DNA of 64,000 bases from NCBI RefSeq assembly GCF_030123505.1, contig NZ_CP126115.1, positions 1,378,001 through 1,442,000 of the forward strand, in the 5' to 3' direction. Origin of the DNA: Neobacillus sp. YX16 (GTDB lineage Bacteria > Bacillota > Bacilli > Bacillales > Cytobacillaceae). A program made the position numbers and the translations under genes. The notes beneath the pieces were generated by a model. That model had not been told where the DNA came from, did not search any database, and saw only the letters and a program-made list of their open reading frames with translations. This document shows, one piece after another, positions 8,683-42,051 of the stretch (positions within the stretch are counted from its first letter, which is position 1; each line of letters begins with the position of its first letter).

Positions 8683-8797
8683 CTATTCGTTACCGTGAGC
8701 AGACTTTTTAACCCAAGACGGGCACGAATAGCTTCTATTCGTTACTGTGATCGTTTTTTAAACCCAAGACGGGCACGAATAACTTCCATTCGTTACT
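8683..8797. repeat. 52-bp tandem array A (2 full units plus a partial)
   Basis: Units begin at 8683, 8735 and 8787, exactly 52 bp apart. Each has TATTCGTTAC at one end and CGGGCACGAATA at the other, an inverted pair with 7-bp arms TATTCGT/ACGAATA, around a T-rich middle. It fills the gap between the tRNA-Gly terminator and the stop codon of the convergent B3/B4 gene. It is the same family as array C (30213-30435) in the opposite orientation. Confidence 0.9.
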
Positions 8798-8799
8798 CC

Positions 8800-9471
8800 C
8801 TACTGACTTCCTAATATATAGAAGCTCGCTTCACCGCCATGAAGTTGTGTGAACATCTTCATCAACGACTCTGTCAGCCTTTCCGCACTATTCACTGCTG
8901 TAGAAGGCTGTAAATAGATGATCTGAAGCGCATTTTTGGTCGTTTCCGTTACCGGCGCTCTATTAGAATCTACAAATGGACTTCCGAATGGTCCGAGCTG
9001 ATCCGATGATACAATCAGGTTTTCTAATGAGTTCATCCGGCCATTCAGTCCTAAATATTGTTCGCCTGCCTTCGCAACTTCGATCGTTATTTGTCCCTCT
9101 AGTTTATCGCTGTCATAAATACCAATCGGTACTTGATATTGTAAGGAGAAAAAGTTATTGATATCAATGGCACTTTGGACAGCGGAAAGATAATTCTGTT
9201 TCTGAACTCTGCGGTATAGTGCCTCCGAAGAAGGGCGATAGCGGTTAGGGTCCTTGCCAAAAGTTTTAAAAATACTGCGCCATTCTTGGATTCCTGGTAA
9301 CTCAGATAGATTTTTATTTTCTAATTCAAAGTAAATCGATTCTTGAAAAAGCTGCAGTCTTCCTTTGACCATTTGTGGGGAATCGCCTACGGTAATCTCT
9401 TTATATTCTATGATTCCAAGCTTAAAATGAGGAATCTGGCTTATTATTTCTGACGAAAGCTGAATTTCCAA
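8800..9471 (-). CDS. B3/B4 domain (PheT-like tRNA-binding) protein
   Basis: A 223-residue protein with the B3/B4 domain found in the beta subunit of phenylalanyl-tRNA synthetase and in stand-alone bacterial proteins. Typical pieces are WRSIFKTFGKDPNRYRPSSE, ALYRRVQKQNYL, and NNFFSLQYQVPIGIYD. TTG at 9471 is chosen because GGAGGTGGA sits about 5 nt upstream; an upstream ATG at 9510 would place that site inside the gene. In PheRS the domain takes part in editing; stand-alone copies may have a related trans-editing or hydrolytic role, which is inference. It is divergent from queG. Confidence 0.75.
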   Translation of the reverse strand: MEIQLSSEIISQIPHFKLGIIEYKEITVGDSPQMVKGRLQLFQESIYFELENKNLSELPGIQEWRSIFKTFGKDPNRYRPSSEALYRRVQKQNYLSAVQSAIDINNFFSLQYQVPIGIYDSDKLEGQITIEVAKAGEQYLGLNGRMNSLENLIVSSDQLGPFGSPFVDSNRAPVTETTKNALQIIYLQPSTAVNSAERLTESLMKMFTQLHGGEASFYILGSQ

Positions 9472-9577
9472 TGATTCCACCTCCAAAATTTCATAAAAAT
9501 AGTTTATCATAATGAGATGTGGAACGAGAAATTAGCGGCTTACTATAGATTATTTTTAGATGAAGGGAGGTTTCCGA

Positions 9578-10711
9578 ATGAATATTGATCAATTGAAGGA
9601 GGAAGTCATTGCGTATAGTAAAACGATTGGCATTGATAAAATTGGTTTTACCACGGCAGATCCTTTCACTGAGCTGAAAAATAGACTGATTCGCCAGCAG
9701 GAACTTGGGTATCAATCTGGTTTTGAAGAGCCTGATATTGAAAAACGGGTGACACCAGCCATGCTTCTTCCAGAACCGAGATCTATTATTTCCATCGCTC
9801 TGGCCTATCCTTCAAAAATGAAGGTTCGTGTTGAAGGGAGAAAAGGTGAGCGGAGAGGCTTTTTTTCCCGAGCTTCATGGGGATTAGATTATCATCATAT
9901 TTTACGAGACCGTTTAAAAAAGCTAGAGGCATTTATTTTAGAAAAAGTGCCAGAGGCTCGTCTCAAATCGATGGTTGATACAGGTGAGCTTTCTGACCGT
10001 GCTGTTGCAGTGAGGGCGGGGATTGGCTGGAGCGGTAAGAATTGTGCAGTCATGACACCGGAGTTTGGCTCTTACGTCTATATAGGCGAAATGATTACCA
10101 GCATTGCTTTTGCAGCTGATACACCTATGGAGGATCAATGCGGTTCCTGCACAGCTTGTATTGACGCTTGCCCGACGGGAGCGCTGGTGCAAGGCGGACA
10201 GATTAATGCTCAGCGCTGTATCGCCTTTTTAACGCAGACAAAGGCTGTGATTCCTGAAGAATTTAGAGATAAGATTGGCAACCGGGTGTATGGTTGTGAT
10301 TCCTGTCAAACGTCCTGCCCAGTCAATAAAGGGAAGGATTTTCACTTCCATGAGGAAATGGAGGCTGACCCCGAGACAGCCAAGCCATTACTGAGACCGA
10401 TGTTAAAAATGAGTAATCGTGAATTTAAGAACAGATTTGGTCCCGTAGCGGGATCATGGAGAGGTAAAAGGCCGATTCAGCGCAATGCGATCATCGCGCT
10501 GGCCCATTTCAAGGACGAAAGTGCTATTCCAGATTTACTAGATGTGTTAGAAAATGAAACCAGCAGTGTTCTAAAAGAAACGGCGGCTTGGGCTCTGGGG
10601 AAAATTGGCAGTATGGAAGCGGTTGAGGCATTAGAAAAAGCAGCAGAAAAGGAAGACGATTTAGTAGTGAAGAGTGAGATTAATAAAAGTTTACTAAAAC
10701 TAAAGAACTAA
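9578..10711 (+). CDS. queG: Epoxyqueuosine reductase QueG
   Basis: A 377-residue cobalamin- and iron-sulfur-dependent enzyme catalysing the last step of queuosine synthesis, reducing epoxyqueuosine in tRNA anticodons to queuosine. The catalytic Asp region is VDTGELSDRAVAVRAGIG (D134). Two [4Fe-4S] clusters are visible: CGSCTACIDACP (C188-C198) with C247 or C214, and CDSCQTSCP (C240-C247). The C-terminus carries HEAT-like repeats (about 300-375), as in the Bacillus protein. ATG at 9578 follows GGGAGG. It heads the queG-amidase-trmL-nfrA block seen at B. subtilis yhbA-yhbB-cspR. All expected motifs are intact. Confidence 0.95.
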   Translation: MNIDQLKEEVIAYSKTIGIDKIGFTTADPFTELKNRLIRQQELGYQSGFEEPDIEKRVTPAMLLPEPRSIISIALAYPSKMKVRVEGRKGERRGFFSRASWGLDYHHILRDRLKKLEAFILEKVPEARLKSMVDTGELSDRAVAVRAGIGWSGKNCAVMTPEFGSYVYIGEMITSIAFAADTPMEDQCGSCTACIDACPTGALVQGGQINAQRCIAFLTQTKAVIPEEFRDKIGNRVYGCDSCQTSCPVNKGKDFHFHEEMEADPETAKPLLRPMLKMSNREFKNRFGPVAGSWRGKRPIQRNAIIALAHFKDESAIPDLLDVLENETSSVLKETAAWALGKIGSMEAVEALEKAAEKEDDLVVKSEINKSLLKLKN

Positions 10712-10747
10712 ATGAGCGAGGACATTCTGTCTTTGCTCATTTTTTTA
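10711..10747 (+). terminator. Rho-independent terminator after queG
   Basis: AATGAGC pairs with GCTCATT, with an inner GACA/TGTC stem, followed by seven T. It overlaps the queG stop codon. Confidence 0.8.
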
Positions 10748-10798
10748 AATTAAATTTCCCAACTGCACATATGTATGAAACAGAAGGGGGAGATGAAG

Positions 10799-11665
10799 GT
10801 GAATCAATCACTCCAAGAATTGTTTGAAGGACGAGTCGAACAATTTGTTTCAAAGCGTAAGAGGCAGTCGGGGAATTATGAAAAGGCCGAACAGAAGCTG
10901 GAGTCTTTTGCGAAACGGTCCGCAGATATCGTAAAGGTTAAGGCACGGGGGAACATCCTCAAACGATCCGTGGATGGGGATTTTCAAACCACGATCTATC
11001 AGGTTCATTACCAATACCTGATTAAACAAAAAGGAACGCTGTATCAAGAGGAAGAAGTCGAAGTGCGAATGTGCAAGTTTTTTAAAAATGATTTGATTAT
11101 GGATAAAGAAATAAATCCTTATACGAAGCAGCCTGAGTTGGAATTTGCAGCAGAGGATGAACAGGAGGAACGGATTAGTTATCAGTATAATCGCTTAAAA
11201 GCTGTTCAATATGCGGAACGCTGGTGGAATACCTATAATCCAGCGTTTATAAAATTTGAAAATAACTGTACAAACTTTATTTCACAATGTCTTTATGCAG
11301 GAGGAGCTCCAACGAGAGGTTTTCCTAACCGGGGCACTGGCTGGTGGCTCCGAAATAAAAATTATAGTTATAGTTGGGCTGTAGCACATTCTATGCGGTT
11401 ATATTTAGCTAATTCTAAAAGTGGTTTGAGAGCAAAAGAAGTTAGCAGCCCGAATCAATTATTATTGGGGGATGTCATTTGTTACGATTTCGAAGGGGAT
11501 GGCCGTTATAATCATAACACGATGGTCACCGCTAAGGATGCCTATGGAATGCCGCTTGTTAATGCCAATACGTACAACAGCCGTATGCGGTACTGGGCCT
11601 ATGAAGATTCATCTGCCTACACACCGAATATTAAATATAAGTTTTTCACGATTGTCGATGGGTGA
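10799..11665 (+). CDS. YhbB-like protein with C-terminal putative amidase domain (Amidase_6)
   Basis: About 288 residues. The C-terminal half (from about residue 125) is a putative amidase/NlpC-P60-like domain: YNRLKAVQYAERWW, the Cys region NNCTNFISQCLYAGG, a DVICYDFEGDGRYNHNT segment with a likely catalytic His, and a closing NANTYNSR. The N-terminal half is hydrophilic, alpha-helical and unassigned. No signal peptide is visible, so a cell-wall substrate is uncertain. GTG at 10799 lies 8 nt after AGGGGG and is preferred; ATG at 10775 is an alternative. Position and domain match B. subtilis yhbB beside queG and cspR. Confidence 0.8.
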   Translation: MNQSLQELFEGRVEQFVSKRKRQSGNYEKAEQKLESFAKRSADIVKVKARGNILKRSVDGDFQTTIYQVHYQYLIKQKGTLYQEEEVEVRMCKFFKNDLIMDKEINPYTKQPELEFAAEDEQEERISYQYNRLKAVQYAERWWNTYNPAFIKFENNCTNFISQCLYAGGAPTRGFPNRGTGWWLRNKNYSYSWAVAHSMRLYLANSKSGLRAKEVSSPNQLLLGDVICYDFEGDGRYNHNTMVTAKDAYGMPLVNANTYNSRMRYWAYEDSSAYTPNIKYKFFTIVDG

Positions 11666-11731
11666 GAAAATTTGTTTGGCTGGGTGATAATGGTATAATG
11701 TTAGAAGAGTTTTTTTTATGAGGTGAGATTC

Positions 11732-12205
11732 TTGGCAATACATGTTGTACTATATCAGCCGCAAATACCTTCAAACACAGGAAACATCGCAAGAACCTGT
11801 GCTGGAACCGATACATCTTTACATTTGATCCGTCCATTAGGATTCTCAACGGATGATAAAATGTTAAAGAGAGCGGGATTGGATTATTGGGAATTTGTAA
11901 ATATTGTTTATTATGATTCACTAGATGATTTTTATCAGAAAAATGAAGGCGGAGAATTTTTCTATATCACGAAGTTTGGGGAGAAGCCCTATAGTTCCTT
12001 TGATTATGGCAATCCCGATAAAGATTATTTTTTCATTTTTGGCCGAGAAACGACAGGGCTTCCAAAAGACGTGATTGAAAATAATAAGGATGTCAGCCTG
12101 AGGATTCCGATGAATGAGAATATTCGTTCCTTGAATTTGTCCAATACCGCTGCAATTCTAATTTATGAGGCATTAAGGCAGCAAGACTATCGTCATTTAA
12201 AATAA
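11732..12205 (+). CDS. trmL: tRNA (cytidine(34)-2'-O)-methyltransferase TrmL
   Basis: A 157-residue SPOUT methyltransferase (cspR in B. subtilis) that methylates the ribose of the wobble base in tRNA-Leu species using S-adenosylmethionine. Visible motifs are IPSNTGNIARTC near the start, HLIRPLGF, FGRETTGLP, and the trefoil-knot segment SLNLSNTAAILIYEALRQ. TTG at 11732 follows AGGTGA and gives the family start MAIHVVLYQP; the GTG at 11723 overlaps that binding site. Length is typical. It is part of the conserved queG-yhbB-trmL block. Confidence 0.95.
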   Translation: MAIHVVLYQPQIPSNTGNIARTCAGTDTSLHLIRPLGFSTDDKMLKRAGLDYWEFVNIVYYDSLDDFYQKNEGGEFFYITKFGEKPYSSFDYGNPDKDYFFIFGRETTGLPKDVIENNKDVSLRIPMNENIRSLNLSNTAAILIYEALRQQDYRHLK

Positions 12206-12211
12206 GACGCA

Positions 12212-12237
12212 AGAGGCCAAGCCGATGGCCTCTTTTT
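12212..12237 (+). terminator. Rho-independent terminator after trmL
   Basis: AGAGGCCA and TGGCCTCT form an 8-bp perfect stem followed by TTTTT. Confidence 0.9.
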
Positions 12238-12261
12238 GCTAAACAGAAAGGAAGAATAATA

Positions 12262-13011
12262 ATGAATGAAGTAATTACTTCTATATTAAATCATCGATCA
12301 ATCCGTCATTTTAAGGACAAGCAGTTAAGTGATGAACAAATAAAAACGATTGTTGCCTGTGCCCAAGCTGCTTCAACATCAAGTTTTATCCAGGCATATT
12401 CGATTATAGGCATAAAGGATAAGGAAAAAAAGCGGAAGCTTGCGGAGATAGCAGGAAACCAAGAATATGTTGCCCAGAATGGTCATCTATTTGTTTTTTG
12501 CGCCGATTTAAGCCGGCATGAATTGATTGGAAAAATGGAAGGAAAAGATGTACTCGCTTCAATTGAAAGTACGGAGAAATTTATGGTTGCGCTCATCGAT
12601 GCGACGTTGGCAGCTCAAAATGCGGCAATTGCTGCGGAATCGATGGGACTAGGTATTTGTTATATAGGTGGAATTCGAAATAAGCTTGAGGATGTAAAAG
12701 AATTATTAAAAACTCCAGACAGGGTCATCCCGCTCTTTGGAATGACTATAGGCTATCCTGAGAAAATAAATGACCAAAAGCCAAGACTGCCTTTTGAACA
12801 TGTTTATCATGAAGAAGAATATGAACAGGATCAAGACGTATATTTGCGCCAGCTGCAAGAATATAATCAGGTAATCTCCAACTATTATGTAGAGAGGACA
12901 AGCGGGAAAAGGAAGGATACCTGGACTGAGCAAATGGCAAACATGCTTGAAAAGCAAACACGGATGTATATGAAGGAATTTGTTCAAAAAAATAAGATGG
13001 ATTTGAGATAG
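12262..13011 (+). CDS. nfrA: NfrA-type NADPH-dependent FMN oxidoreductase
   Basis: A 249-residue flavin nitroreductase-fold protein. It begins with the family signature SILNHRSIRHFKDKQLSDEQ, and has AAQNAAIAAESMGLGICYIGGIRN and the C-terminal MANMLEKQTRMYMKEFV. NfrA enzymes use NAD(P)H to reduce FMN, nitro compounds or peroxide, and in Bacillus are linked to stress. ATG follows GAAAGGAAG. It is bounded by hairpins on both sides, so it is probably a single transcription unit. The physiological substrate cannot be fixed from sequence. Confidence 0.9.
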   Translation: MNEVITSILNHRSIRHFKDKQLSDEQIKTIVACAQAASTSSFIQAYSIIGIKDKEKKRKLAEIAGNQEYVAQNGHLFVFCADLSRHELIGKMEGKDVLASIESTEKFMVALIDATLAAQNAAIAAESMGLGICYIGGIRNKLEDVKELLKTPDRVIPLFGMTIGYPEKINDQKPRLPFEHVYHEEEYEQDQDVYLRQLQEYNQVISNYYVERTSGKRKDTWTEQMANMLEKQTRMYMKEFVQKNKMDLR

Positions 13012-13030
13012 TAGTGTATAGGTTATGCTG

Positions 13031-13080
13031 AAAAGTGTACAGTTCCTACAAAAAAGCGTACAGCTTCTACAAAACGCATA
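13031..13080. repeat. Short degenerate tandem repeat, about 21 bp
   Basis: AAAAGTGTACAGTTCCTAC, then AAAAGCGTACAGCTTCTAC, then AAAACGCATAC: about 2.5 copies of a 20-21 bp unit between the nfrA stop and its terminator. Confidence 0.7.
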
Positions 13081-13090
13081 CACAAATAAA

Positions 13091-13118
13091 AAAGGCTGCC
13101 CCTATGGCAGCCTTTTTA
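13091..13118. terminator. Rho-independent terminator after nfrA
   Basis: AAGGCTGCC and GGCAGCCTT form a 9-bp stem, followed by TTTTT on the plus strand and by TTTTTT on the minus strand. It can serve nfrA and the convergent small gene. Confidence 0.9.
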
Positions 13119-13130
13119 AATGGAAAGATA

Positions 13131-13223
13131 TTATTTACTGGATCCTGGCTTATCATTATAACCTGATGCAAAAATAGCTGCTAGAAACGCCACCATAACC
13201 AAAATAACTAGAAAAGTTCCCAT
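13131..13223 (-). CDS. 30-residue membrane miniprotein
   Basis: A very short gene encoding 30 residues: MGTFLVILVMVAFLAAIFA forms one hydrophobic helix, followed by the polar tail SGYNDKPGSSK. The ATG lies 12 nt after an AAGGAGG site, slightly far but strong. It is flanked by the nfrA/own terminator downstream and transcribed away from prkA. Such tiny membrane proteins are common in Bacillaceae and are often sporulation- or stress-expressed. The family is not recognised and function is unknown. Confidence 0.6.
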   Translation of the reverse strand: MGTFLVILVMVAFLAAIFASGYNDKPGSSK

Positions 13224-13369
13224 GCTTATGTAAAGCCTCCTTAATTTTAAGATATTTCTTAGTTTAGACACATATACATTTATTATAGCCTATCTTTAAA
13301 AAATGAAAAGAGCAATATTCCAATCTTTTCATAAAACAAAAAAGATAGGCAGGAATACTTCAACGTTAC

Positions 13370-13398
13370 GCATGTTCAAGTTCTTTGGTGCATAGAGT
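13370..13398 (+). promoter_or_regulatory. Candidate SigmaE-type promoter of prkA
   Basis: GCATGTT (13370-13376) and CATAGAGT (13391-13398) with a 14-bp spacer resemble the mother-cell SigmaE pattern (about TCATATT, 13-15 bp, CATACAAT). It lies 41 bp before the prkA start. The match is partial. Confidence 0.4.
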
Positions 13399-13438
13399 AT
13401 ATTAATCGTCTCTGATAACGCTACAGGGGGAGGGCCTT

Positions 13439-15334
13439 ATGGATATCCTAAAAAAAATTGAGATGTTTCGAGAAGAGGAAGAAAAGCTACGTTGGGAAGG
13501 GTCATTTGGAGATTATTTACTGTTGTTAAAAGAGAAGCCATGGGTAGCACAATCGGCACATTCACGAGTATATAATATGATCAAAGACGCTGGAATTGAG
13601 GAAGTAAAAGGGACTAAGAATTACAATTTCTTTGGGAATCAATTATTTGGTTTAGAGGAATCATTGGAAAGACTTGTCGAGGAATACTTCCATCCTGCGG
13701 CTAAAAGGCTGGATGTAAGAAAGCGGATTTTATTGCTAATGGGTCCGGTAAGCGGAGGTAAATCTACACTTGTTACCATGCTGAAACGTGGTTTAGAGGC
13801 CTATTCCCATACGGATAGAGGCTCTGTTTTCGCCATTAAAGGCTGCCCGATGCATGAAGACCCGCTTCATTTAATCCCTCATCATTTACGTCGTGATTTT
13901 TATGAAGAGTATGGTATTCGCATTGAAGGAAATCTTTCACCATTGAATATGATGCGCCTTGAGCAAGAGTATGGTGGAAGAATCGAAGATGTGTTAGTTG
14001 AAAGAATCTTTTTCTCAGAGGATAAGCGAACTGGAATTGGAACCTTTAGCCCATCGGATCCAAAATCACAGGATATTGCTGATTTAACAGGAAGTATTGA
14101 CTTCTCTACTATTGCCGAATTTGGTTCAGAATCAGATCCACGCGCCTACCGCTTTGATGGTGAACTGAATAAAGCGAATCGGGGAATGATGGAATTCCAA
14201 GAAATGTTGAAGTGTGATGAAAAGTTCTTGTGGCATTTGCTTTCTTTAACACAAGAAGGAAACTTTAAAGCTGGAAGGTTTGCGTTAATTAGTGCGGATG
14301 AACTTATCGTAGCTCACACAAACGAAACGGAATACCGTTCATTTATTTCGAATAAGAAGAATGAAGCCTTGCATTCCAGGATTATCGTTATGCCAATTCC
14401 GTATAATTTAAAAGTTTCACAGGAAGAAAGAATCTATGAAAAGATGATTAGCGAAAGTGATGTATCGGATGTGCATATTGCACCGCATACATTACGGGTT
14501 GCAGCGATGTTTACGATTCTAACCCGTCTGAAGGAACCAAAGAAGGGTGATATTGACTTAGTTAAGAAAATGCGCCTGTACGATGGTGAAAATGTGGAAG
14601 GCTTTAATGCGGTTGATGTCAGTGAACTTAAGAAAGAATACCCAGATGAAGGTATGAGTGGGATTGACCCGCGTTATGTTATTAACCGGATATCATCTAC
14701 TATCATCCGTAAAGAAGTACCGTCTATAAATGCACTGGATGTTTTAAGATCGTTAAAAGACGGTCTGGATCAACATCCTTCTATCACAGCTGAACTCCGT
14801 GAGCGCTATATGAATTATATTTCGGTTGCACGGAAAGAGTATGATAATATTGCCAAAAATGAAGTTCAAAAAGCTTTTGTATACTCCTATGAAGAGTCCG
14901 CTAAAACGTTAATGGATAATTACCTTGATAATGTTGAGGCTTACTGCAACAAAGCGAAGCTTCGTGATGTGTTAACAGGTGAGGAAATCAACCCAGATGA
15001 AAAATTAATGCGTTCGATTGAAGAACAAATTGGAATTTCTGAAAATGCGAAAAAGGCATTTAGGGAAGAAATCCTGATTAGAATCTCCGCCTTTGCTAGA
15101 AAAGGTAAACGATTTGATTACAATTCTCATGATCGACTTCGTGAAGCAATTCAAAAGAAATTATTTGCAGACCTTAAAGATGTTGTCAAGATTACCACTT
15201 CTTCCAAAACTCCTGATGAGCAGCAGTTAAAGAAAATAAATGATGTTGTTGCTAGATTAATTGACGAACACGGCTATAACTCAACATCAGCAAATGAACT
15301 ATTACGGTATGTCGGAAGTTTATTAAACCGGTAA
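13439..15334 (+). CDS. prkA: PrkA family serine protein kinase / AAA+ ATPase
   Basis: A 631-residue protein. The N-terminal AAA+ part has Walker A GPVSGGKST (102-110). It also shows RIEGNLSPLNMMRLEQEYGG, DKRTGIGTFSPSDPKSQD and NKANRGMMEFQEMLK, all characteristic of PrkA. The C-terminal third is the PrkA kinase-related domain. In Bacillus it acts during sporulation in the mother cell; kinase and Lon-like protease activities have both been proposed. ATG follows GGGGAGGG. It is followed by yhbH; PrkA, YhbH and SpoVR form a conserved trio (YeaG, YeaH, YcgB in E. coli), with spoVR at the far end of this window. Confidence 0.97.
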   Translation: MDILKKIEMFREEEEKLRWEGSFGDYLLLLKEKPWVAQSAHSRVYNMIKDAGIEEVKGTKNYNFFGNQLFGLEESLERLVEEYFHPAAKRLDVRKRILLLMGPVSGGKSTLVTMLKRGLEAYSHTDRGSVFAIKGCPMHEDPLHLIPHHLRRDFYEEYGIRIEGNLSPLNMMRLEQEYGGRIEDVLVERIFFSEDKRTGIGTFSPSDPKSQDIADLTGSIDFSTIAEFGSESDPRAYRFDGELNKANRGMMEFQEMLKCDEKFLWHLLSLTQEGNFKAGRFALISADELIVAHTNETEYRSFISNKKNEALHSRIIVMPIPYNLKVSQEERIYEKMISESDVSDVHIAPHTLRVAAMFTILTRLKEPKKGDIDLVKKMRLYDGENVEGFNAVDVSELKKEYPDEGMSGIDPRYVINRISSTIIRKEVPSINALDVLRSLKDGLDQHPSITAELRERYMNYISVARKEYDNIAKNEVQKAFVYSYEESAKTLMDNYLDNVEAYCNKAKLRDVLTGEEINPDEKLMRSIEEQIGISENAKKAFREEILIRISAFARKGKRFDYNSHDRLREAIQKKLFADLKDVVKITTSSKTPDEQQLKKINDVVARLIDEHGYNSTSANELLRYVGSLLNR

Positions 15335-15346
15335 TTAAAATAGTAG

Positions 15347-15380
15347 GGACTGGCGGAAGGAATCTGCCAGTCTGTTTTTT
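15347..15380 (+). terminator. Rho-independent terminator after prkA
   Basis: GACTGGC and GCCAGTC form a 7-bp stem, with a T-run after GTCTG. prkA and yhbH may therefore be separate units or be only partly coupled. Confidence 0.8.
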
Positions 15381-15603
15381 TCAATAATGGTTGATAAATT
15401 TTAATAATTTTGTCAAACCAAAGTAGCTCGTCCATTTTTAAAGGTGTGAGCCTAATTGTCAAAATAATTTGTAAATTATTTGCTGCTTCTGCATAGGATA
15501 AAGTAATCAACATTATCTGCATTTTTACACTCGGGTTATCTTATGATTTTTCAAAAAAAATGTGACTCTGAAAACAACAAAAATTAATAAGGAGGGGTTT
15601 ACA

Positions 15604-16770: not shown

Positions 16771-16772
16771 CT

Positions 16773-16803
16773 AAAATCGACAGGTACAATACCTGTCGAT
16801 TTC
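16773..16803. terminator. Bidirectional terminator between yhbH and the kinase gene
   Basis: AAATCGACAGGTA and TACCTGTCGATTT form a 13-bp perfect stem with a very short loop, shared by the two convergent genes. Confidence 0.85.
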
Positions 16804-18077: not shown

Positions 18078-18198
18078 CTATTTCACCATCCAATGTGCTT
18101 ATAGGAAAATTTTACATTTTTCTTCGTATTAATACAATAAAATTTACTAATTATTTTGAATAAATAAGTGAAAAGGGATGGAAATTGTAGAAATATGT

Positions 18199-18236
18199 AT
18201 AAAAACGGAAGGATTAAAGCCCTTCCGTTTTTATTT
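18199..18236 (-). terminator. Terminator of the diguanylate cyclase gene
   Basis: AAAAACGGAAGG and CCTTCCGTTTTT form a 12-bp stem with flanking T-runs on both strands, directly after the minus-strand stop codon. Confidence 0.85.
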
Positions 18237-20568: not shown

Positions 20569-20570
20569 TG

Positions 20571-21233: not shown

Positions 21234-21478
21234 TTAGACACATCCAATCATTTTAATAAACCTCATTACTACTATTATAAAAAACATAACCCTCTCAATT
21301 TTTGTAAAAATGGTGAAGTTCGTGAACATTAAGTGTCGAAAAGTGGTAAGTATATTATTAATTTTAAGTAGGAATAAATTCATTAAATTGTTAGAATTCT
21401 TTTATGATAATTAATCAGTAATGCAATATGATTAAGTTAGAACATTGTGAAGATTTAATACCAAAAGGCGGAATTACT

Positions 21479-22501: not shown

Positions 22502-22543
22502 AAAAGAATCGGAATCACCTTTGAGTGGATTCGATTCTTTTTT
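22502..22543 (+). terminator. Rho-independent terminator after the PAS-GGDEF gene
   Basis: AAGAATCGGAATCAC pairs with GTGGATTCGATTCTT (one unpaired base), followed by TTTTTT. Confidence 0.85.
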
Positions 22544-22558
22544 CAGCCTTAGCTTAGC

Positions 22559-23572: not shown

Positions 23573-23847
23573 TTCATACCAAATCCTTTTTTAGTCTAAT
23601 GAATAAATCTATTATAAACTTTTGCGTTAACTATTGGGAGATTTATCAGTAATCGTATTGTAAATATGATTATATTATCCTAAATATCTACACAAAAGTC
23701 TAAAGAATCTCTATTAGGGCGGAAATTATTTTTATGTGAAATGATATGCCGGAGTAAATTAATTTGTCCAGCCACTCTGAATTCGATAAACTATAGAAAG
23801 AGTGTAGTGTAAGAATTATCAAGAATCTATTTGGGAGTGAGCATTAA

Positions 23848-25089
23848 ATGAATAAAAGAGTAGTGATTACAGGTGTTGGAGCAGTCACTCCTTTGGGAAA
23901 TGATGCTCATACATCATGGAAACAAATTAAAAGTGGAGTTTCCGGAATTGGTCCTGCAACCCTATTTGACGTCGAAAAGGTTGACGTTAAGATTGCAGCG
24001 GAAGTTAAAGGATTTGCACCAGAAGAGTTTATGGATAAAAAAGAAGCAAGAAGGATGGGGCGTTATAGCCAGTTTGCTATTGCAGCAAGTCAAATGGCAA
24101 TTAAGGATGCAGGAATCCAAATTGGAGAGGATATCCAACCAGAACGTGTCGGCGTATGGATTGGATCAGGAATTGGCGGCTTGGCTGAATTTGAGGAACA
24201 ACATCGGAAGTTTATAGAAAAAGGCCAAAGAAGGGTCAACCCGTTTACAATACCGATGTTTATTCCTGATATGGCGGCAGGTCAAGTATCCATTTCACTT
24301 GGTGCTAAAGGAATCAACAATTGTTCGGTTACAGCATGTGCGTCTGGTGCCAATTCCATTGGTGATGCATTCCGCGTGATTCAAAAGGGGGATGTGGATG
24401 TGATGATTGCTGGTGGAACGGAAGCAACCATTACCGGGATGACGGTTGCGGGATTTTCAAATATGACTGCACTTTCAAAAAATCCAGACCCGGCCACAGC
24501 AAGCAGACCATTTGATAAAAATCGTGATGGATTTGTCATTGGGGAAGGTGCAGGGATTGTGGTCTTAGAAGAATTAGAACATGCATTAGCTCGTGGTGCT
24601 GCCATTTATGGAGAATTAATAGGTTATGGGGCTACAGGTGATGCCCATCATATTACGACTCCTGCACCAGAAGGAGAAGGGGCTGGAAGGGCAATGAAAT
24701 TAGCATTAGCAGATGCTGGTATTACCCCTGACCATGTTGACTATATCAATGCTCATGGCACGTCCACCTATTATAATGATTTGTATGAAACATTAGCCAT
24801 CAAAGAAGTTTTCAAAGACCATGCCTATAAATTATCTGTCAGTTCCACGAAATCAATGACAGGCCACTTGTTGGGCGCAACGGGGGCAATAGAAGCGATT
24901 TTTTCTCTTTTTACAATCAAGGATGGAATCATCCCGCCAACGATCAATTATGAAACACCTGATGAACAACTGGATTTAGATTATGTCCCTAACGTAGCTA
25001 AGGTAAAGGATGTTCAAGTGGTATTATCCAACTCATTAGGATTTGGCGGTCATAATGCCACTTTGGTTTTTAAAAAATTTACCGAATAA
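23848..25089 (+). CDS. fabF: Beta-ketoacyl-ACP synthase II
   Basis: A 413-residue condensing enzyme that elongates acyl-ACP with malonyl-ACP. The catalytic triad is in place: C164 ([10 protein letters not shown]), H303 (NAHGTST) and H340 ([12 protein letters not shown]). Length and fold are those of FabF. Two features are unusual: it is not next to fabH or other fab genes, and the usual STPYND after the first His is STYYND. It may be a second FabF copy with altered chain preference. ATG follows GGGAGTGAG. A 52-bp tandem array lies downstream. Confidence 0.93.
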
Positions 25090-25151
25090 AATTAGCTGTG
25101 ATATTTACTATTAAAGCTCTATAAAGACCAAAATGCGATGAAAATAGGGGG

Positions 25152-25490
25152 GCGGTCACTATAAGGGCACCATAGTGACCGAAATTCCCAAAAAGTAGGG
25201 GCTGCGGTCACTATAAGGGCACCATAGTGACCGAAATCCCCAAAAAGTAGGGGCTGCGGTCACTATAAGGGCACCATAGTGACCGAAATCCCCAAAAAGT
25301 AGGGGCTGCGGTCACTATAAGGGCACCATAGTGACCGAAATCCCCCAAAAAGTAGGGGCTGCGGTCACTATAAGGGCACCATAGTGACCGAAATCCCCAA
25401 AAAGTAGGGGCTGCGGTCACTATAAGGGCTCCTTAATGACCCAAACTCCAAAAAAGCTGAAGCCACGATCACTATAAAGGCTCCAGCTTT
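25152..25490. repeat. 52-bp tandem array B (5 near-perfect units plus 1-2 diverged)
   Basis: Units begin at 25152, 25204, 25256, 25308, 25361, 25413 and (partial) 25465, spaced 52 bp with one 53. Each unit has perfect 10-bp arms CGGTCACTAT and ATAGTGACCG around AAGGGCACC, then a second small hairpin CCCC-N8-GGGG. The first five units are almost identical. The array lies between the 3' ends of fabF and the convergent phosphoesterase gene. No protein-coding sense is apparent. Confidence 0.95.
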
Positions 25491-25493
25491 TTT
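25451..25493. terminator. Terminator at the end of array B
   Basis: AAAAAGCTGAAGCC pairs with GGCTCCAGCTTTTT (one mismatch), with T-runs on both strands, so it can terminate both convergent transcripts. It is built from the last, degenerate repeat unit. Confidence 0.75.
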
Positions 25494-25509
25494 TCATGTA
25501 TATAAATTG

Positions 25510-26613
25510 CTATAAACCAAGCTTTTTTAGGAAGTCTACTGTTTCTTGATGCTCAGGTTTAATTAGTTTAAGTAATCTTTTATCAGTCTTTACAAGGGGC
25601 TTTCCGGTTTCATCTGCAATCGCTCTTGTAAACGAAGTACTGTTTAAAACTTTCCACTTTCCGTCTTGAACCTCTAACTGAAGATCGATAATTCCAAGCC
25701 TGCTTCCAAAAGCACCTGCCATGACAACTGGCTTTCCCTTGATTTTCCCTTCGTCAATATTTGTATTAGGTAAATCCTTGTAGGCGCGTCCCGGGAAAAT
25801 GCCATGAGAATGTCCGGCTAGAATGGCATCAATTTCTTGAATCTCACTTAGGTAATAGACTGCATTTTCCGTTTCAGGATGGTATGGTTCACTATCAATA
25901 CCTGTATGGGCAAGAGCAATGATAATATCTGCTCCTTTGGCCTTCATCTTCGGTACGAATTCCTTCGCGGCTTCCACTATGGGCCGCGCAATCACTTTAC
26001 CTTCTAAATTTGCTTTATCCCATCGCATAATTTGAGGCGGCATAAAACCTATGACTCCAATTTTTAATTCATGACTTTGTCCCTGAATGTCGACAACATT
26101 CCTTTTTAAAATAACATAAGGCTTAAAGTAAGGCTTATTGGTTTTTGCTTTATATACATTTGCATTAACCACAGGCATTTTAGCCCCTTTTAGGACAGTT
26201 TTTAGGAATTTAAGCCCATAATTTAATTCATGATTGCCGATTGCAATCCCATCATACTTTAGATAATTAAAGGCACTGTAAACGGGATGTATTTTTCCTT
26301 TTTGAATTCCTTTTATTCTAACCAGGTATTCACCAAGCGGGTTTCCTTTTAAATGGTCGCCATTATCAAACAGAAGGGAATTCACTGCTTCATTTCTGGC
26401 CTGATGAATAAGGCTGGAGGTCTTTACCAGTCCAATTGTATTGTCTGTTTTCGTCTGGTAATAATCATAATTCACTAAAGTAGCATGTAAATCGGTCGTC
26501 TCGAGGATTCGTAAATCAACGATTCTTGTGTTTTCTGCATCCATGTTAGAAGGAAATAGTACTTGAGTGATTGTAAACATGATGAGTAAAAGGAACACCT
26601 TTTTATTGTTCAT
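25510..26613 (-). CDS. Secreted metallophosphoesterase, 5'-nucleotidase/CpdB type, catalytic domain only
   Basis: A 367-residue exported protein. An N-terminal signal (KKVFLLLIMFTITQVLFPS) leads into a calcineurin-like domain: LRILETTDLHAT (metal Asp and His), FDNGDHLKG, IAIGNHELNYG, ALAHTGI and AGHSHGIFPG. These motifs match 2',3'-cyclic-nucleotide phosphodiesterase/3'-nucleotidases. It ends at PEHQETVDFLKKLGL, just where the C-terminal substrate-binding domain normally begins, so it is about half usual length. It could be truncated or a natural single-domain enzyme. ATG at 26613 follows GGAGGGGG; a TTG 9 nt upstream is possible. Confidence 0.8.
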   Translation of the reverse strand: MNNKKVFLLLIMFTITQVLFPSNMDAENTRIVDLRILETTDLHATLVNYDYYQTKTDNTIGLVKTSSLIHQARNEAVNSLLFDNGDHLKGNPLGEYLVRIKGIQKGKIHPVYSAFNYLKYDGIAIGNHELNYGLKFLKTVLKGAKMPVVNANVYKAKTNKPYFKPYVILKRNVVDIQGQSHELKIGVIGFMPPQIMRWDKANLEGKVIARPIVEAAKEFVPKMKAKGADIIIALAHTGIDSEPYHPETENAVYYLSEIQEIDAILAGHSHGIFPGRAYKDLPNTNIDEGKIKGKPVVMAGAFGSRLGIIDLQLEVQDGKWKVLNSTSFTRAIADETGKPLVKTDKRLLKLIKPEHQETVDFLKKLGL

Positions 26614-26793
26614 AAACGTCAACCCCCTCCAAACAGTTAATTATGTGTTATTATTTGGCAGATTGCAGCTGTTGATACATGCGAAAAGAACCATTAAAAG
26701 TACAACAACATGTTCATTAAACTGTGACATTGGTCAACGCCGATTGGTGAAAACGTACATTATAATAAAGTATATAATAGGTATTTATTTAAA

Positions 26794-26807
26794 TGTAACC
26801 GTTTGCA
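26794..26807 (+). promoter_or_regulatory. Candidate catabolite-responsive element (CcpA site)
   Basis: TGTAACCGTTTGCA matches the cre consensus TGWAANCGNTNWCA at 13 of 14 positions. It sits 33 bp before the first gene of the oxidoreductase operon and after TATAAT-like boxes (26761, 26773), so CcpA would act as a roadblock repressor. Confidence 0.5.
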
Positions 26808-26839
26808 AAAGAGCTTCGTTTAAGGAGGTATCCTTTACA

Positions 26840-27508
26840 TTGAACAGAATCACCATCCTAACCGGTCACTTTGGTAGTGGCAAAACAGAGATTGCGATAA
26901 ATCTGGCAATGAATGAGAAAAAGCTACATAACAAAACAGCTATTAACGACTTAGATGTCATTAATCCTTATTTTCGTTCTAGGGATGTTTCCGATCTTTT
27001 CGAGCAGCGGGATATTGAATTAATAGCTCCTGCCAACCGCCTGGCAACCTCAGATTTACCCATTGTTTCGGGAGAAATCTATCGTGTTTTACATGATCCT
27101 CGCTACAGAGTGATTATCGATGCCGGTGGCGATAAAGATGGAGCTATGGCTTTAGGACAGTATTATCACGAATGGAAGTATTTAGAACCAGAGCTGTTAT
27201 TCGTCCTGAACGCGAATCGTCCATATGTCAGTACCATAGAAGGTGCGATCTACACGATTGAGCAGATTGAAAAGGCTGCTCGTTTAAAGGTAACGGGAAT
27301 CATCAACAATTCAAATATCGGCAGCGAAACGAGCATGGCAGATATCCTCAACGGGTATGAGATGAGTTTGGAGGTGTCAAACATACTTTCAATTCCGCTG
27401 CTATACACTACCATCTCTGTTGATTTAGAAAATAAAGCCAGTTGTTTTGCAAATAGCCATCAGGTGATGTTCATCAAGCGTTATATGAAAGTACCCTGGG
27501 AAGGATAG
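26840..27508 (+). CDS. P-loop ATP-binding protein heading the 2-oxoacid oxidoreductase operon
   Basis: A 222-residue cytoplasmic NTPase of the MinD/CobQ-like P-loop group. Walker A is GHFGSGKTE (residues about 9-17); INDLDVINPYFRSR and VIIDAGGDKDG carry the Walker B-like region. TTG at 26840 is chosen for the excellent AAGGAGG upstream and the start MNRITILTGHFGSGKTE. Genes like this recur as the first gene of clusters encoding 2-oxoacid:ferredoxin oxidoreductases in Bacillaceae. A role in cofactor loading or maturation is plausible but unproven. Confidence 0.8.
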   Translation: MNRITILTGHFGSGKTEIAINLAMNEKKLHNKTAINDLDVINPYFRSRDVSDLFEQRDIELIAPANRLATSDLPIVSGEIYRVLHDPRYRVIIDAGGDKDGAMALGQYYHEWKYLEPELLFVLNANRPYVSTIEGAIYTIEQIEKAARLKVTGIINNSNIGSETSMADILNGYEMSLEVSNILSIPLLYTTISVDLENKASCFANSHQVMFIKRYMKVPWEG

Positions 27509-27520
27509 GAGTGAAAACAG

Positions 27521-27751
27521 GTGGAAAAAAGAGTTGTTTTTAATGAGGATATTTGTAAATCGTGCGGACTTTGTGTTCAGGTATGCCCAACAAATGTTAT
27601 TTTTCTAGCAGACTATTTAAATGGAAAAGGCTATCGTCCCGCAGCCGTCACCGATCAGGACCATTGTATTAGCTGTGCGAAATGCGCCCAAATTTGCCCG
27701 GATTGTGTCATTTCCGTATACAGACCAGTCAAGGTTTTGCAATCTGTTTAA
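27521..27751 (+). CDS. 2x[4Fe-4S] ferredoxin-like subunit of 2-oxoacid:ferredoxin oxidoreductase
   Basis: A 76-residue protein with two complete CxxCxxCxxxCP sets: CKSCGLCVQVCP near residue 11 and CISCAKCAQICP near residue 46. It is the delta (electron-transfer) subunit of VOR/KOR/POR-type enzymes, passing electrons from thiamine-linked oxidation to ferredoxin. GTG start follows TAGGAG. It lies 12 bp after the P-loop gene and 19 bp before the alpha subunit, clearly in the same operon. Confidence 0.92.
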   Translation: MEKRVVFNEDICKSCGLCVQVCPTNVIFLADYLNGKGYRPAAVTDQDHCISCAKCAQICPDCVISVYRPVKVLQSV

Positions 27752-27770
27752 TTTGAAAGGAGCCTTATTT

Positions 27771-28835
27771 ATGGGGAAAGTGTTGATGAAAGGAAATGAA
27801 GTCATCGCGGAAGCAGCTGTCCAAGCAGGTTGTAAATACTTTTTTGGCTATCCGATTACACCGCAAAGTGAGCTTGTAGCCTACATGGCGAGAAGACTCC
27901 CAGAGGTTGGCGGGTTATTTCTGCAGGCTGAAAGTGAAATCGCTGCGATCAATATGGTTTATGGTGCTGCTGGGACAGGAGTCAGGGTTATGACCTCCTC
28001 TTCAAGTCCTGGATTCAGCTTAAAACAGGAGGGAATTTCCTATTTAGTAGGTTCAGAGTTACCCGCTGTCGTTGTAAACATCGTTCGGGGCGGCCCTGGC
28101 TTAGGGAATATCCAGCCTGCCCAGTCTGATTACTTCCAGGTAACAAAGGGCGGCGGTCATGGGGACTATAATATCCCCGTGTTGGCACCCGCTTCTTTAC
28201 AAGAAATCGTCGAATTAACAAGTGAAGCATTTGACATCGCCGACCGCTACCGTACACCTGTGATTCTTATGGGGGATGGGATGCTCGGGCAAATGATGGA
28301 GCCAGTAGAGTTTATAGATGGGACTGAATCAGAGCTTCCAGAAAAGAATTGGGCAACAACCGGAACCCGCGGAGACGGACCGCGAAGAATTATCACCTCA
28401 CTGGAGCTTAATGCTAAAAGCTTGGAAACTCGTAACGAAGCCTTGCAGAAAAAGTTTGCGAGAATCAAAGAAAACGAGGTTCGCTACAAAACCTATCTAA
28501 CCGATGATGCTGACTATATTATGGTAGCTTTTGGCACAGTAGCCCGAATTACGATGAATGCTATTAATAAAGCTAGACAGCAAGGTTTAAAAGTAGGACT
28601 AATCCGTCCAATTTCACTTTGGCCATTCCCAGAAAAACCGTTCCTAGAAACGAGAGATGTAGTAAAAGGATATATTTCCGTAGAAATGAGTGCCGGTCAA
28701 ATGGTTGAGGATGTGAGATTGGCTGTTAATGGTCATGCAGAGGTGGACTTTTACGGACGGACAGGCGGAGTGGTACCAACTCAGGAAGAAATTTATCAAA
28801 AGATTTTAACTGTAACCGGAGGTATTACGGTATGA
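27771..28835 (+). CDS. vorB: 2-oxoacid:ferredoxin oxidoreductase alpha subunit (VorB/KorA type)
   Basis: A 354-residue subunit with the N-terminal pyrimidine-binding domain ([54 protein letters not shown]) and the C-terminal transketolase-like domain ([11 protein letters not shown]). In these enzymes it cooperates with the beta subunit to oxidise a 2-oxoacid to its acyl-CoA and reduce ferredoxin. Substrate could be a branched-chain 2-oxoacid or 2-oxoglutarate; sequence alone does not decide. ATG at 27771 follows AAAGGAG. The stop overlaps the next start (ATGA). Confidence 0.92.
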
Positions 28836-29584
28836 GTATGAAAACAGTTTTTAAAAAGACAAACGGTTTGACCGATAACCCAACACACTACTGTCCGGGC
28901 TGTACACACGGCGTCATCCACCGGCTTGTCGGAGAGGTTCTGGAAGAAATGGATATTTTAGAGGACACGATTGGAGTTGCCTCTGTCGGGTGTTCGGTTT
29001 TATCCTATGAATATTTTAATTGTGATATGACTCAGGCGGCTCACGGCCGTGCTCCAGCTGTGGCAACAGGAGTGAAAAGGGTGCTGCCTGACCGCTATGT
29101 ATTTACCTATCAAGGTGATGGGGACCTAGCATCCATCGGTATAAGTGAAGTCATTCATGCTGCCGCTAGAGGGGAAAAAATTACGGTTATTTTTGTAAAT
29201 AATGCGATTTATGGTATGACAGGCGGACAAATGGCACCGACTACCTTGATCGGCCAAAAAACAGCTACTACCCCTTTTGGACGTGATGAAAGTATTCAGG
29301 GATCGCCGATTAAAGTCTGTGAAATGCTGGCTACTTTAGATGGAACTGCCTACATTGAAAGAGTTTCTGCACATGATGTACCACATATCCAAAAGGCAAA
29401 ACGTGCGATTCGGAAGGCGTTTGAAGCACAAAAAAATGGGCTTGGCTTTTCAATGGTTGAGATATTATCAACCTGCCCGACAAACTGGGGTCTTGATCCT
29501 TACGAATCCCTTGAATGGGTAAAAGATAATATGATTCCTGCTTATCCTCTAGGCGTTTACAAAAATATAGAGGGGGGCCAGTAA
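28832..29584 (+). CDS. 2-oxoacid:ferredoxin oxidoreductase beta subunit (TPP-binding)
   Basis: A 250-residue subunit carrying the thiamine diphosphate site: [20 protein letters not shown] (cluster/cofactor cysteines), [17 protein letters not shown], the GDGD motif ([12 protein letters not shown]), and [18 protein letters not shown]. It overlaps the alpha subunit by 4 bp and is followed 2 bp later by the gamma subunit. Together they form an alpha-beta-gamma-delta enzyme. All key residues are present. Confidence 0.93.
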
Positions 29585-29586
29585 AC

Positions 29587-30129
29587 ATGTTGGAGGAAAT
29601 CATTATCGCAGGTTTTGGCGGACAGGGTGTCATGTCAATGGGTCAACTGATAGCATATGCTGGCATGCTCGAAGGGAAAGGAGTTTCATGGCTTCCATCC
29701 TATGGTCCTGAACAACGCGGCGGAACGGCAAACTGTGCAGTGATTGTATCCGATGAACCCGTTGGTTCCCCGCTAGTCACAAATCCTTCGACAGCTATAA
29801 TTCTAAATAATCCTTCCTTCGATAAATTCGAACACCGAGTACGTCCAGGAGGATTATTGATTATTAATTCATCATTAGTGACAAGAGTTTCCGAACGCAG
29901 TGATATCGAAATCATTGAATTAACTGCAACCGATATGGCAGCAGATCTTGGAAATGCACGGGTCGCGAACATGATTTTATTAGGCGCCTTTATCGAACAG
30001 ACAAAGGTAGTTTCGAGTGAATCCATCATAGAATCATTGAAAAAAGTACTGTCAAAAGAAAAACACCATTTAATGGAGGTTAACAAACATGCTCTCAATA
30101 AGGGGTTTAGTTCTGTAAAAACAGCCTGA
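29587..30129 (+). CDS. 2-oxoacid:ferredoxin oxidoreductase gamma subunit
   Basis: A 180-residue protein with the gamma-domain signature IIIAGFGGQGVMSMGQLIAYA, then WLPSYGPEQRGGTANCAVIVSD and NARVANMILLGAFI. This domain binds coenzyme A in the complex. It is the last gene of the five-gene operon (P-loop, delta, alpha, beta, gamma) and ends in a strong terminator. Length is normal. Confidence 0.93.
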   Translation: MLEEIIIAGFGGQGVMSMGQLIAYAGMLEGKGVSWLPSYGPEQRGGTANCAVIVSDEPVGSPLVTNPSTAIILNNPSFDKFEHRVRPGGLLIINSSLVTRVSERSDIEIIELTATDMAADLGNARVANMILLGAFIEQTKVVSSESIIESLKKVLSKEKHHLMEVNKHALNKGFSSVKTA

Positions 30130-30150
30130 TTATCATTCAGGCTGTTTTTA
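30117..30150 (+). terminator. Rho-independent terminator of the oxidoreductase operon
   Basis: AAACAGCCTGA and TCAGGCTGTTT form an 11-bp stem, followed by a T-run. It overlaps the stop codon of the gamma subunit. Confidence 0.9.
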
Positions 30151-30212
30151 CATTTGGGCCATCATTAAATGGAAGCATATACGGGAAATTTAGAAATTTT
30201 TCGGACATTACC

Positions 30213-30435
30213 GCTATTCGTACCCGTTCAGGTTGAAAAAGGGGCCAAGCGGTAACGAATAAAGGCTATTCGTGCCCGTGGGTGATAAAAAAGGAGTCAA
30301 GCGGTAACGAATAAAGGCTATTCGTGCCCGTGGGTGATAAAAAAGGAGTCAAGCGGTAACGAATACAGGCTATTCGTACGCGTTCGGACTAAAAAAGGAG
30401 CCAAGCAGTAGCGAAAAGTTCTAATCGTGCGTTAT
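30213..30435. repeat. 52-bp tandem array C (4 units plus a diverged fifth)
   Basis: Units begin at 30213, 30265, 30317, 30369 and 30421, exactly 52 bp apart. Each runs from TATTCGTGCCCG (or TATTCGTACCCG) through an A-rich centre to GCGGTAACGAATA. Units 2 and 3 are essentially identical; units 1, 4 and 5 are diverged. The inverted arms TATTCGT/ACGAATA pair within each unit and also across the short gap between units. The reverse complement matches array A. It lies between convergent genes. Confidence 0.95.
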
Positions 30436-42015: not shown

Positions 42016-42051
42016 CATTAATGCCTTAATTGATTGTTGAATTTTACAAGT

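What the first reader, a model, noticed from the sequence alone, without database searches (positions are those of the whole stretch)
8683..30435. Three 52-bp-period palindromic arrays, all between convergent genes
Arrays at 8683-8797, 25152-25490 and 30213-30435 all repeat at 52 bp (one 53-bp step). Each unit holds inverted arms. A and C share half-sites TATTCGT(K/M)CC in opposite orientation; B has unrelated 10-bp arms CGGTCACTAT/ATAGTGACCG but the same period and placement. Every array lies tail-to-tail between two 3' ends. About five helical turns per unit suggests protein binding on one face or RNA hairpin trains. This may be a family of terminal transcription insulators, DNA-organising sites, or a mobile intergenic repeat. 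I know of no named element with this design.
Basis: partly seen in the sequence, partly recalled or inferred. Interest (0 to 1): 0.85.

Follow-up and report, generated by a model that had tools for sequence, protein, structure and literature searches.

The report
Helically phased 52-bp DNA repeat modules
Scattered through this Bacillus relative are short DNA arrays that repeat every 52 base pairs, five turns of the double helix, whatever their sequence; they belong to a known but unexplained class, and their layout suggests DNA sites that wrap around a protein at the ends of genes and ribosomal RNA operons.

Summary
The three arrays are real. They belong to a published class of unknown function: constant-size (52 nt), variable-sequence tandem repeats of Bacillus (Subirana & Messeguer 2021, PMC8161180). 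What I did not find in print is the anatomy and placement. (1) Period: in 2.06 Mb of this genome, noncoding self-matches give 27 stretches at lag 52 and at most 3 at any other lag from 30 to 103. (2) Module: units are ARM(~11)-N25-ARM' plus a short linker. Dyad-aligned, 30 of 30 arrays (20 of 20 found by period alone) have C at -14 and G at +14. Array ends cluster at arm ends. Solo modules exist, one at 42051-42095 here. (3) A/T content alternates at 10.4 bp (z 8.5; 18 published repeats of other species, z 7.0), so 52 is five helical turns. (4) Placement: after 7 of 7 5S-ended rRNA operons found; convergent gaps enriched (8 of 27 against 12%) but not exclusive. (5) Some orthologous gaps carry other arm families with the same geometry. 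I favour DNA modules bound, probably wrapped, by an architectural or topological protein, still unidentified.

The parts
8684..8730 (-). Array A, module 1 (TATTCGTTACC-N25-GGGCACGAATA as read on +)
8736..8781 (-). Array A, module 2 (inner spacer one base short)
8788..8797 (-). Array A, extra left half-arm
25120..25479 (+). Array B: 5 clear ATAGTGACC-N25-GGTCACTAT modules at 52/53-bp steps with a degenerate module at each end; the last overlaps a terminator hairpin
25448..25488 (-). Intrinsic terminator-like hairpin and T-run of the 25510-26622(-) gene, built over the last module of array B
30215..30417 (+). Array C: 4 modules TATTCGTGCCC-N25-GGTAACGAATA at exact 52-bp steps, last one degenerate
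30122..30151 (+). Intrinsic terminator-like site of the 29587-30129(+) gene, upstream of array C
42051..42095 (.). Solo module TATCGTTCCC-N25-GGGAACGATT in the convergent gap between 41628-41969(+) and 42156-44441(-)

Best explanation
Each repeat is a double-stranded DNA module: two inverted ~11-bp half-sites held 25 bp apart, iterated in 52-bp steps (five 10.4-bp turns), so that every module and its A/T-rich helix faces keep one rotational phase. Most likely a sequence-tolerant architectural or topological protein binds the half-sites and bends or wraps the DNA over about five turns per module. The arrays tend to sit at the ends of transcription units, above all rRNA operons and convergent gaps, where positive supercoils collect, and would anchor or trap that protein there. 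Shown here: the geometry, the 10.4-bp alternation, the placement, the turnover. Inferred: that a protein is bound, the wrapping, and the supercoil role. DNA gyrase is the best-motivated candidate; an unnamed wrapping nucleoid protein is the alternative.
For: Period 52 for different sequences. C-14 and G+14 each in 30 of 30 arrays, the dyad being set by arm complementarity and not by base identity; 20 of 20 for the arrays found by period alone. Both bases in 27 of 29 non-redundant arrays of related genomes (partly by construction, see Tried and rejected). In family A the spacer is 23 in 167 of 181 distinct unit strings, both strands counted, although 16-30 was allowed; the inner sequence differs between arrays while the arms stay, as expected for a trans-acting recogniser. 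A/T power at 10.4 bp: 31.8 against 13.7 in intergenic 52-mers, reached by 0 of 2000 bootstraps; the 20 period-found arrays alone, z 6.2; 8 arm-distinct arrays, 0 of 500 shuffles; 18 published repeats of other Bacillus species, z 7.0, or 15 without near-duplicates, z 5.7. Ends fall 21-28 bp from the terminal dyad at 18 of 29 5' and 16 of 29 3' edges. 7 of 7 5S-ended rRNA operons found carry an array just after the 5S. In E. coli the gyrase motif shows symmetrical G/C content with a 10.75-bp period, and gyrase sites accumulate downstream of rRNA operons and in BIME-2 (PMC6379681, passages read).
Against: No binding protein was identified. AA/TT and AAA/TTT show no 10.4-bp enrichment, so intrinsic A-tract curvature is not supported. 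The 10.4-bp component is the strongest one in only 12 of 30 arrays (10% of intergenic 52-mers) and 6 of 15 published repeats; a 6.5-bp component also beat all 2000 bootstraps (z 4.3), though it vanishes in the 8 arm-distinct arrays, and a 4.7-bp one is high in the published set (z 3.9). Arrays are dispensable at given places: array B is reduced to part of one module in a same-species genome, 42 of the 60 orthologous loci fetched show no array at lags 51-53, and 0 of 5 5S-ended rRNA operons of G005 have one. Detectable intrinsic terminators are not enriched in gaps with arrays (12 of 26 against 461 of 724). The gyrase motif itself could not be scored, and B. subtilis, which has gyrase (recalled), is listed without 52-nt repeats (PMC8161180 Table 4). 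Inner-only periodicity cannot tell 10.4 from 12-13 bp.
Confidence: 0.5

Rival explanations
1. RNA-level function: the transcribed array is a train of tight hairpins (arm'-linker-arm) acting as 3' end protector, protein sponge or small RNA.
For: Arms are inverted and 52-nt repeats are reported transcribed in B. coagulans (PMC8625621, one section and passages read). Most arrays lie at 3' ends (25 of 27 outside the window).
Against: Most array ends keep ARM-N25-ARM modules whole and cut tight hairpins: 34 of 58 ends lie 21-28 bp from the terminal dyad, 3 of 58 at 37-41 where whole tight hairpins would end; solo modules have no tight hairpin. Arm positions 15 and 16 pair in only 17 and 16 of 30 arrays, while 13, 14 and 17-22 pair in 22-30 (the dyad was chosen for pairing, so these levels lean high). 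A 10.4-bp composition wave is a double-helix property. No array matched an Rfam family over its gathering score (window whole; 16 loci at E up to 1).
Confidence: 0.15
2. REPIN/MITE-like mobile units spread by a Y1 (RAYT) or other transposase and then tandemly amplified.
For: Inverted arms with a constant-length variable spacer resemble REP doublets (recalled); solo and tandem copies coexist.
Against: Only 2 Y1_Tnp genes found, no module within about 1.5 kb of either. The most conserved bases are at the inner, not the outer, arm ends. Different arm families sit in the same orthologous gap. No exact family-A match in viral contigs. Other transposase families were not examined.
Confidence: 0.1
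3. By-product of recombination or replication: tandem duplication with no function, the 52-bp size set by the duplicating machinery.
For: Copy number changes by whole units between same-species genomes (array C 4 against 2; array B 6-7 against part of one). The purine-rich strand is the leading strand in 27 of 30 arrays (57.5% of background intergenic 25-mers). Many orthologous gaps have no array.
Against: Slippage alone does not explain one period for different sequences, conserved arms with free inner sequence, helical composition, or 7 of 7 rRNA ends.
Confidence: 0.15
4. Back-up transcription terminators or road-blocks (insulators) at unit ends.
For: Depleted from divergent gaps (2 of 27 against 24.5%), enriched in convergent gaps, present after rRNA operons.
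Against: In the arrays read out, arm hairpins are not followed directly by a T-run, apart from the last unit of array B; terminators are not enriched in array gaps. A protein road-block variant merges with the best explanation.
Confidence: 0.1

Closest known systems
52-nt constant-size, variable-sequence tandem repeats of Bacillus (Subirana & Messeguer 2021, PMC8161180; parent J Bacteriol 2020 paper not held)
   Same: Period 51-53, noncoding, many sequence families per genome, short motifs and their reverse in one repeat, copy number differing between strains. The authors already suggest a protein that needs a constant repeat size to polymerise on the DNA, with a nucleoid role.
   Different: In what I read it gives no common module, no gene-end or rRNA placement and no helical signature. 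Its text holds 0 occurrences of convergent, palindrom-, hairpin, terminator or intergenic and of curv-, bend or superco-. Array A (2 modules) and solo modules fall under its 4-repeat cut-off.
E. coli REP/BIME-2 elements (gyrase sites)
   Same: Intergenic inverted-repeat arrays; gyrase cleavage sites are overrepresented in BIME-2 (PMC6379681 passages).
   Different: Here a strict 52-bp step and N25 spacing with variable arms; no Y1 transposase link found.
E. coli DNA gyrase binding motif (PMC6379681, passages)
   Same: Long, degenerate, symmetrical, periodic G/C content; sites accumulate downstream of rRNA operons.
   Different: 130 bp with 10.75-bp period and not tandem; its matrix was not available, so no direct score. 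BIME-2 signals rose when transcription was blocked, so not all of its sites follow transcription.
20-21-nt tandem repeats of Bacillus and other bacteria (same paper)
   Same: Constant size, variable sequence, about two helical turns (noted in the paper); one congener (G020, L255) has a 21-bp array right after a 5S terminator.
   Different: Two turns instead of five; module structure not studied.

Membership tests
52-nt Bacillus tandem repeats (PMC8161180) | repeat length 51-53 nt | tested here: met
52-nt Bacillus tandem repeats (PMC8161180) | noncoding, several different families of the same size in one genome | tested here: met
52-nt Bacillus tandem repeats (PMC8161180) | short characteristic sequences and their reverse in the same repeat | tested here: met
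52-nt Bacillus tandem repeats (PMC8161180) | copy number only partly conserved between strains | tested here: met
   same-species genome G100: array B reduced to part of one module, array C 2 against 4
52-nt Bacillus tandem repeats (PMC8161180) | at least 4 repeats (their detection cut-off) | tested here: inconclusive
   B and C meet it, A (2 modules) does not
REP/BIME or REPIN | associated Y1 (RAYT) transposase flanked by the element | tested here: not met
   2 Y1_Tnp loci, no modules
REP/BIME or REPIN | GTAG/CGTC-tagged palindrome (PMC3733652, search listing only) | not tested
   no systematic test made
Rfam structured RNA | match over gathering score | tested here: not met
   over threshold only tRNA, T-box and rRNA; below threshold cspA and MIR2587
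DNA gyrase sites | gyrase binding or cleavage in vivo | not testable with these tools
   needs Topo-Seq
DNA gyrase sites | helically periodic G/C content around a dyad | tested here: met
   (period 10.4; E. coli motif 10.75)

The most novel reading that the evidence does not exclude
The 52-bp repeats are a bacterial nucleosome-like positioning code: modules selected for rotational phase rather than sequence, on which DNA gyrase or an undescribed wrapping protein stacks at five turns per module at the ends of rRNA operons and convergent genes, giving topological sinks or domain boundaries. The 20-21-nt class (two turns) would be an interchangeable version.
Probability: 0.25. Interest if true: 0.88.

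Novelty: new member of a known kind. Interest (0 to 1): 0.6.

Why it matters
The published class had 'no obvious explanation' for its constant 52 nt (PMC8161180). A common ARM-N25-ARM module, a 10.4-bp composition wave also present in published repeats of other species, and placement at rRNA operon ends turn that into testable statements: helical phase matters, a protein reads the arms, and supercoiling is the likely context. It would give these Gram-positive bacteria a counterpart of BIME/gyrase sites and a set of ready-made sites for isolating the protein.

Tried and rejected
Bacillaceae-1 RNA, suspected because of the rRNA neighbourhood (recalled): no Rfam hit, and the paper search was uninformative. 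REP/RAYT: no link. Polarity by transcription: a pattern seen early (first-arm type, A-rich centre on the sense strand) did not hold up; purine strand equals gene strand in 12 of 15 codirectional gaps but equals the leading strand in 15 of 15 and in 27 of 30 overall. Replichores were split at 3.1 Mb, while the skew turns nearer 3.4 Mb; only L119 (3.41 Mb) is doubtful for that reason. 'Arrays follow terminators': seen by eye in many loci, not enriched when tested. General search for solo inverted arms: no peak at spacing 25 outside arrays, because ordinary hairpins dominate (14 at spacing 25, 16 at 24, 11 at 26); only some of the 14 look like modules. YbaB/EbfC as binder (GTnAC, recalled): not tested. 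Gyrase matrix: in a supplement, not read. Phylogenetic profiling for the binding protein: not done.

Rows dropped, and limits of counts. The weak stretch L089:8449 is left out of the 30 dyad-aligned arrays (31 stretches found) but kept in the 27 contexts; L077 is left out of edges and context (runs off its stretch); L112 was re-phased by hand by half a unit. Of the 30, 3 are the window's and 7 were known from pattern searches; 20 were found by period alone. Coding stretches were dropped before the lag counts. Chain steps were allowed 51-53 only, so they do not test the period; the lag counts do. In one search one of 17 arrays fell out of the integer-dyad profile. In one search eight stretches were skipped (redundant, coding or containing N); of its 29 arrays 14 come from loci fetched with a pattern that contains C-14 and G+14, and the automatic dyad of two (L182, L040) looks placed on the linker axis; L189 and L034 lack the two bases. 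The published test used all 18 of the 52-nt rows of the table's 27 consensus rows; two 53-nt rows were typed for the dyad test only, seven other rows (50, 51, 53 and 54 nt) were not used. Several of the 18 are near-duplicates; without three of them z falls from 7.0 to 5.7. With automatic dyads 12 of the 20 typed rows show both C-14 and G+14. Background gaps count protein genes only; rRNA and tRNA neighbours of arrays were reassigned by hand. The 13 rRNA operons are those with an exact 21-base 5S match; arrays after them were called at at least 32 of 52, and a stricter scan (32 of 42) recovers 4 of the 7. In some searches only 30 loci each were returned of the matches listed. Six arrays shown for the B search include two (L153, L155) that lie on the other side of the query gene and are not counted as the same gap.
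Full report
WHAT WAS SEEN. The three arrays are at the stated places. A and C are one family read in opposite directions; B is another. The window lies at 1,378,001-1,442,000 of a single-contig genome of 6,231,385 bp. The 19 named stretches that hold the exact family-A pattern come from Neobacillus or Bacillus sp. records, one MAG among them, and one from Scopulibacillus darangshiensis, so the genus is inferred to be Neobacillus.

IS IT CHANCE? No. In the window and 60 evenly placed 20-kb stretches (1.264 Mb), noncoding self-matches of at least 39 of 52 gave 15 stretches at lag 52 and at most 2 at any other lag between 20 and 160, apart from the harmonics 104 (12) and 156 (9). With 40 further hand-placed stretches (2.064 Mb): 27 at lag 52, at most 3 at any other lag from 30 to 103. 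The arrays have many different sequences and up to 15 copies.

ANATOMY. Units are ARM(10-12)-N25-ARM' plus a linker of 3-9 bp, 52 in all. In family A the spacer (23, counted between 12-mers) holds in 167 of 181 distinct unit strings, both strands counted, although 16-30 was allowed. Aligned on the dyad, chosen by arm complementarity and not by base identity, 30 of 30 arrays have C at -14 and 30 of 30 G at +14; for the 20 found by period alone it is 20 of 20 and 20 of 20. Arms pair in 22-30 of 30 arrays at positions 13, 14 and 17-22 but only in 17 and 16 of 30 at positions 15 and 16, where one arm often reads TTACC and the other TGCCC; the choice of dyad lifts these levels. Of 29 arrays from related genomes 27 have both bases, about half of them from loci fetched with a pattern containing them. 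Automatic dyads on 20 published repeats of other species give both bases in 12. Array ends lie 21-28 bp from the terminal dyad at 18 of 29 5' ends and 16 of 29 3' ends; ends placed at random over 52 phases would give about 4.5 each by arithmetic. So arrays are mostly whole modules. Single modules occur, one at 42051-42095 of this window.

WHY 52? A/T content along the unit has a dominant mean Fourier component at five cycles per 52 bp (10.4 bp): z 8.5 over shuffles in 30 arrays, mean 31.8 against 13.7 in 5615 intergenic 52-mers, reached in 0 of 2000 bootstraps. It holds in the 20 period-found arrays (z 6.2), after reduction to 8 arm-distinct arrays (z 4.9, 0 of 500 shuffles), in 29 arrays of relatives (z 8.7), in 18 published 52-mers of other Bacillus species (z 7.0, next highest 3.3) and in 15 of these without near-duplicates (z 5.7). 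Against: it is the top component in only 12 of 30 arrays and 6 of 15 published repeats; a 6.5-bp component also beat the bootstraps (z 4.3) but is lost in the 8 arm-distinct arrays; a 4.7-bp component is high in the published set (z 3.9). In the 30 arrays A/T peaks at the dyad and near +-10 and +-21, G/C near +-7, +-14 and +-26. AA/TT steps are not enriched. This fits DNA lying on a surface better than A-tract curvature. The inner region alone cannot separate 10.4 from 12-13 bp. PMC8161180 notes two helical turns for the 20-21-nt class and suggests a polymerising protein that needs a constant repeat size, but does not say why 52.

PLACEMENT. An exact 5S pattern finds 13 rRNA operon ends. Seven have no tRNA within 1.4 kb, and all 7 have an array (lag 52, one lag 51; at least 32 of 52) starting 40-96 bp downstream; 6 are followed by 2-14 tRNAs, and one of those clusters (16 tRNAs) is followed by array L073. 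A stricter scan recovers 4 of the 7. In relatives the 5S-ended operons carry arrays in 3 of 5 (G055), 0 of 5 (G005) and 1 of 4 (G020, where another has a 21-bp array). Outside the window 8 of 27 arrays are convergent (background 115 of 994 gaps, p 0.009), 2 of 27 divergent (244 of 994, p 0.02), 17 codirectional. Detectable terminators are not enriched in array gaps (12 of 26 against 461 of 724). The purine-rich strand is the leading strand in 27 of 30 (background 57.5%).

TURNOVER. In a same-species genome (98% identity in a protein flanking B) the array B gap holds part of one module, and array C has 2 units instead of 4. In congeners the array C gap carries other arm families (CTATATTGCCC in L182 and L187, TTATAGTGACC in L188, ATTGGCGAC in L189), at 52 bp. 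Of the 60 loci fetched for the two flanking genes, 18 show a lag 51-53 array somewhere and 42 none; none shows an array at lags 30-50 or 54-79. So geometry persists where sequence has changed, but many gaps simply lack an array.

MECHANISM. Constant arms with free inner sequence and fixed spacing point to recognition in trans. Whole modules at most array ends, recurrent unpaired arm positions and a helix-phased composition point to double-stranded DNA rather than RNA. Ends of rRNA operons and convergent gaps are where positive supercoils gather (twin-domain view, recalled). The E. coli gyrase motif has similar features: symmetrical, degenerate, G/C period 10.75 bp, with gyrase sites enriched downstream of rRNA operons and in BIME-2, and 35-52 bp thought to wrap each GyrA C-terminal domain (PMC6379681, passages read). 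Gyrase is therefore the first candidate, but no binding evidence exists here.

KNOWN OR NEW. The class is published (PMC8161180: abstract, sections 1 to 3.4, 4.1, 4.2 and tables read). A companion paper reports transcription in B. coagulans (PMC8625621: one section and passages). The text of PMC8161180 does not mention convergent genes, palindromes, hairpins or terminators. Searches of the held library listed no other description; one search listed 10 of 19 hits. The 2020 parent paper could not be read and may hold more. So: new member of a known kind, with anatomy, helical signature and placement that I did not find in print.

Noticed in passing
   Followed up: yes
L255 (G020), about 44-163 bp after the 5S end: A 21-bp tandem array (lags 21, 42, 63) occupies the rRNA-end place that 52-bp arrays hold elsewhere, suggesting that the 2-turn and 5-turn repeat classes may be interchangeable (one case).
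   Followed up: partly
window 13031-13082: Short 21-bp tandem repeat (about 2.5 copies) right after the 3' end of the 12262-13011 gene; may be a small member of the 20-21-nt class.
   Followed up: no
L155 (G034) flipped 2854-3789: One gap holds two 52-bp array types head to tail: 16 units of ACTTCGGACA type followed by two units with a different inner sequence and opposite A/T bias.
   Followed up: no
L088 13732-14043 and L226 890-1053: The only two of 27 arrays in divergent gaps; L088 lies between a chemoreceptor-like gene and a Dps-like gene (names recalled from the sequence), so it may overlap promoters.
   Followed up: partly
L017 (own genome 3,841,574) and L009 (array A): The L017 array lies beside a cold-shock-like (csp) gene (named from sequence, recalled); both L017 and L009 show a cspA thermoregulator hit below the gathering score.
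   Followed up: no
window 35970-36244: T-box leader (119 bits) upstream of the 36269-37942 gene.
   Followed up: no
L047 7741-8000 (Scopulibacillus darangshiensis): The same family-A arms in another genus, with a different inner sequence: old arm specificity or horizontal spread.
   Followed up: partly
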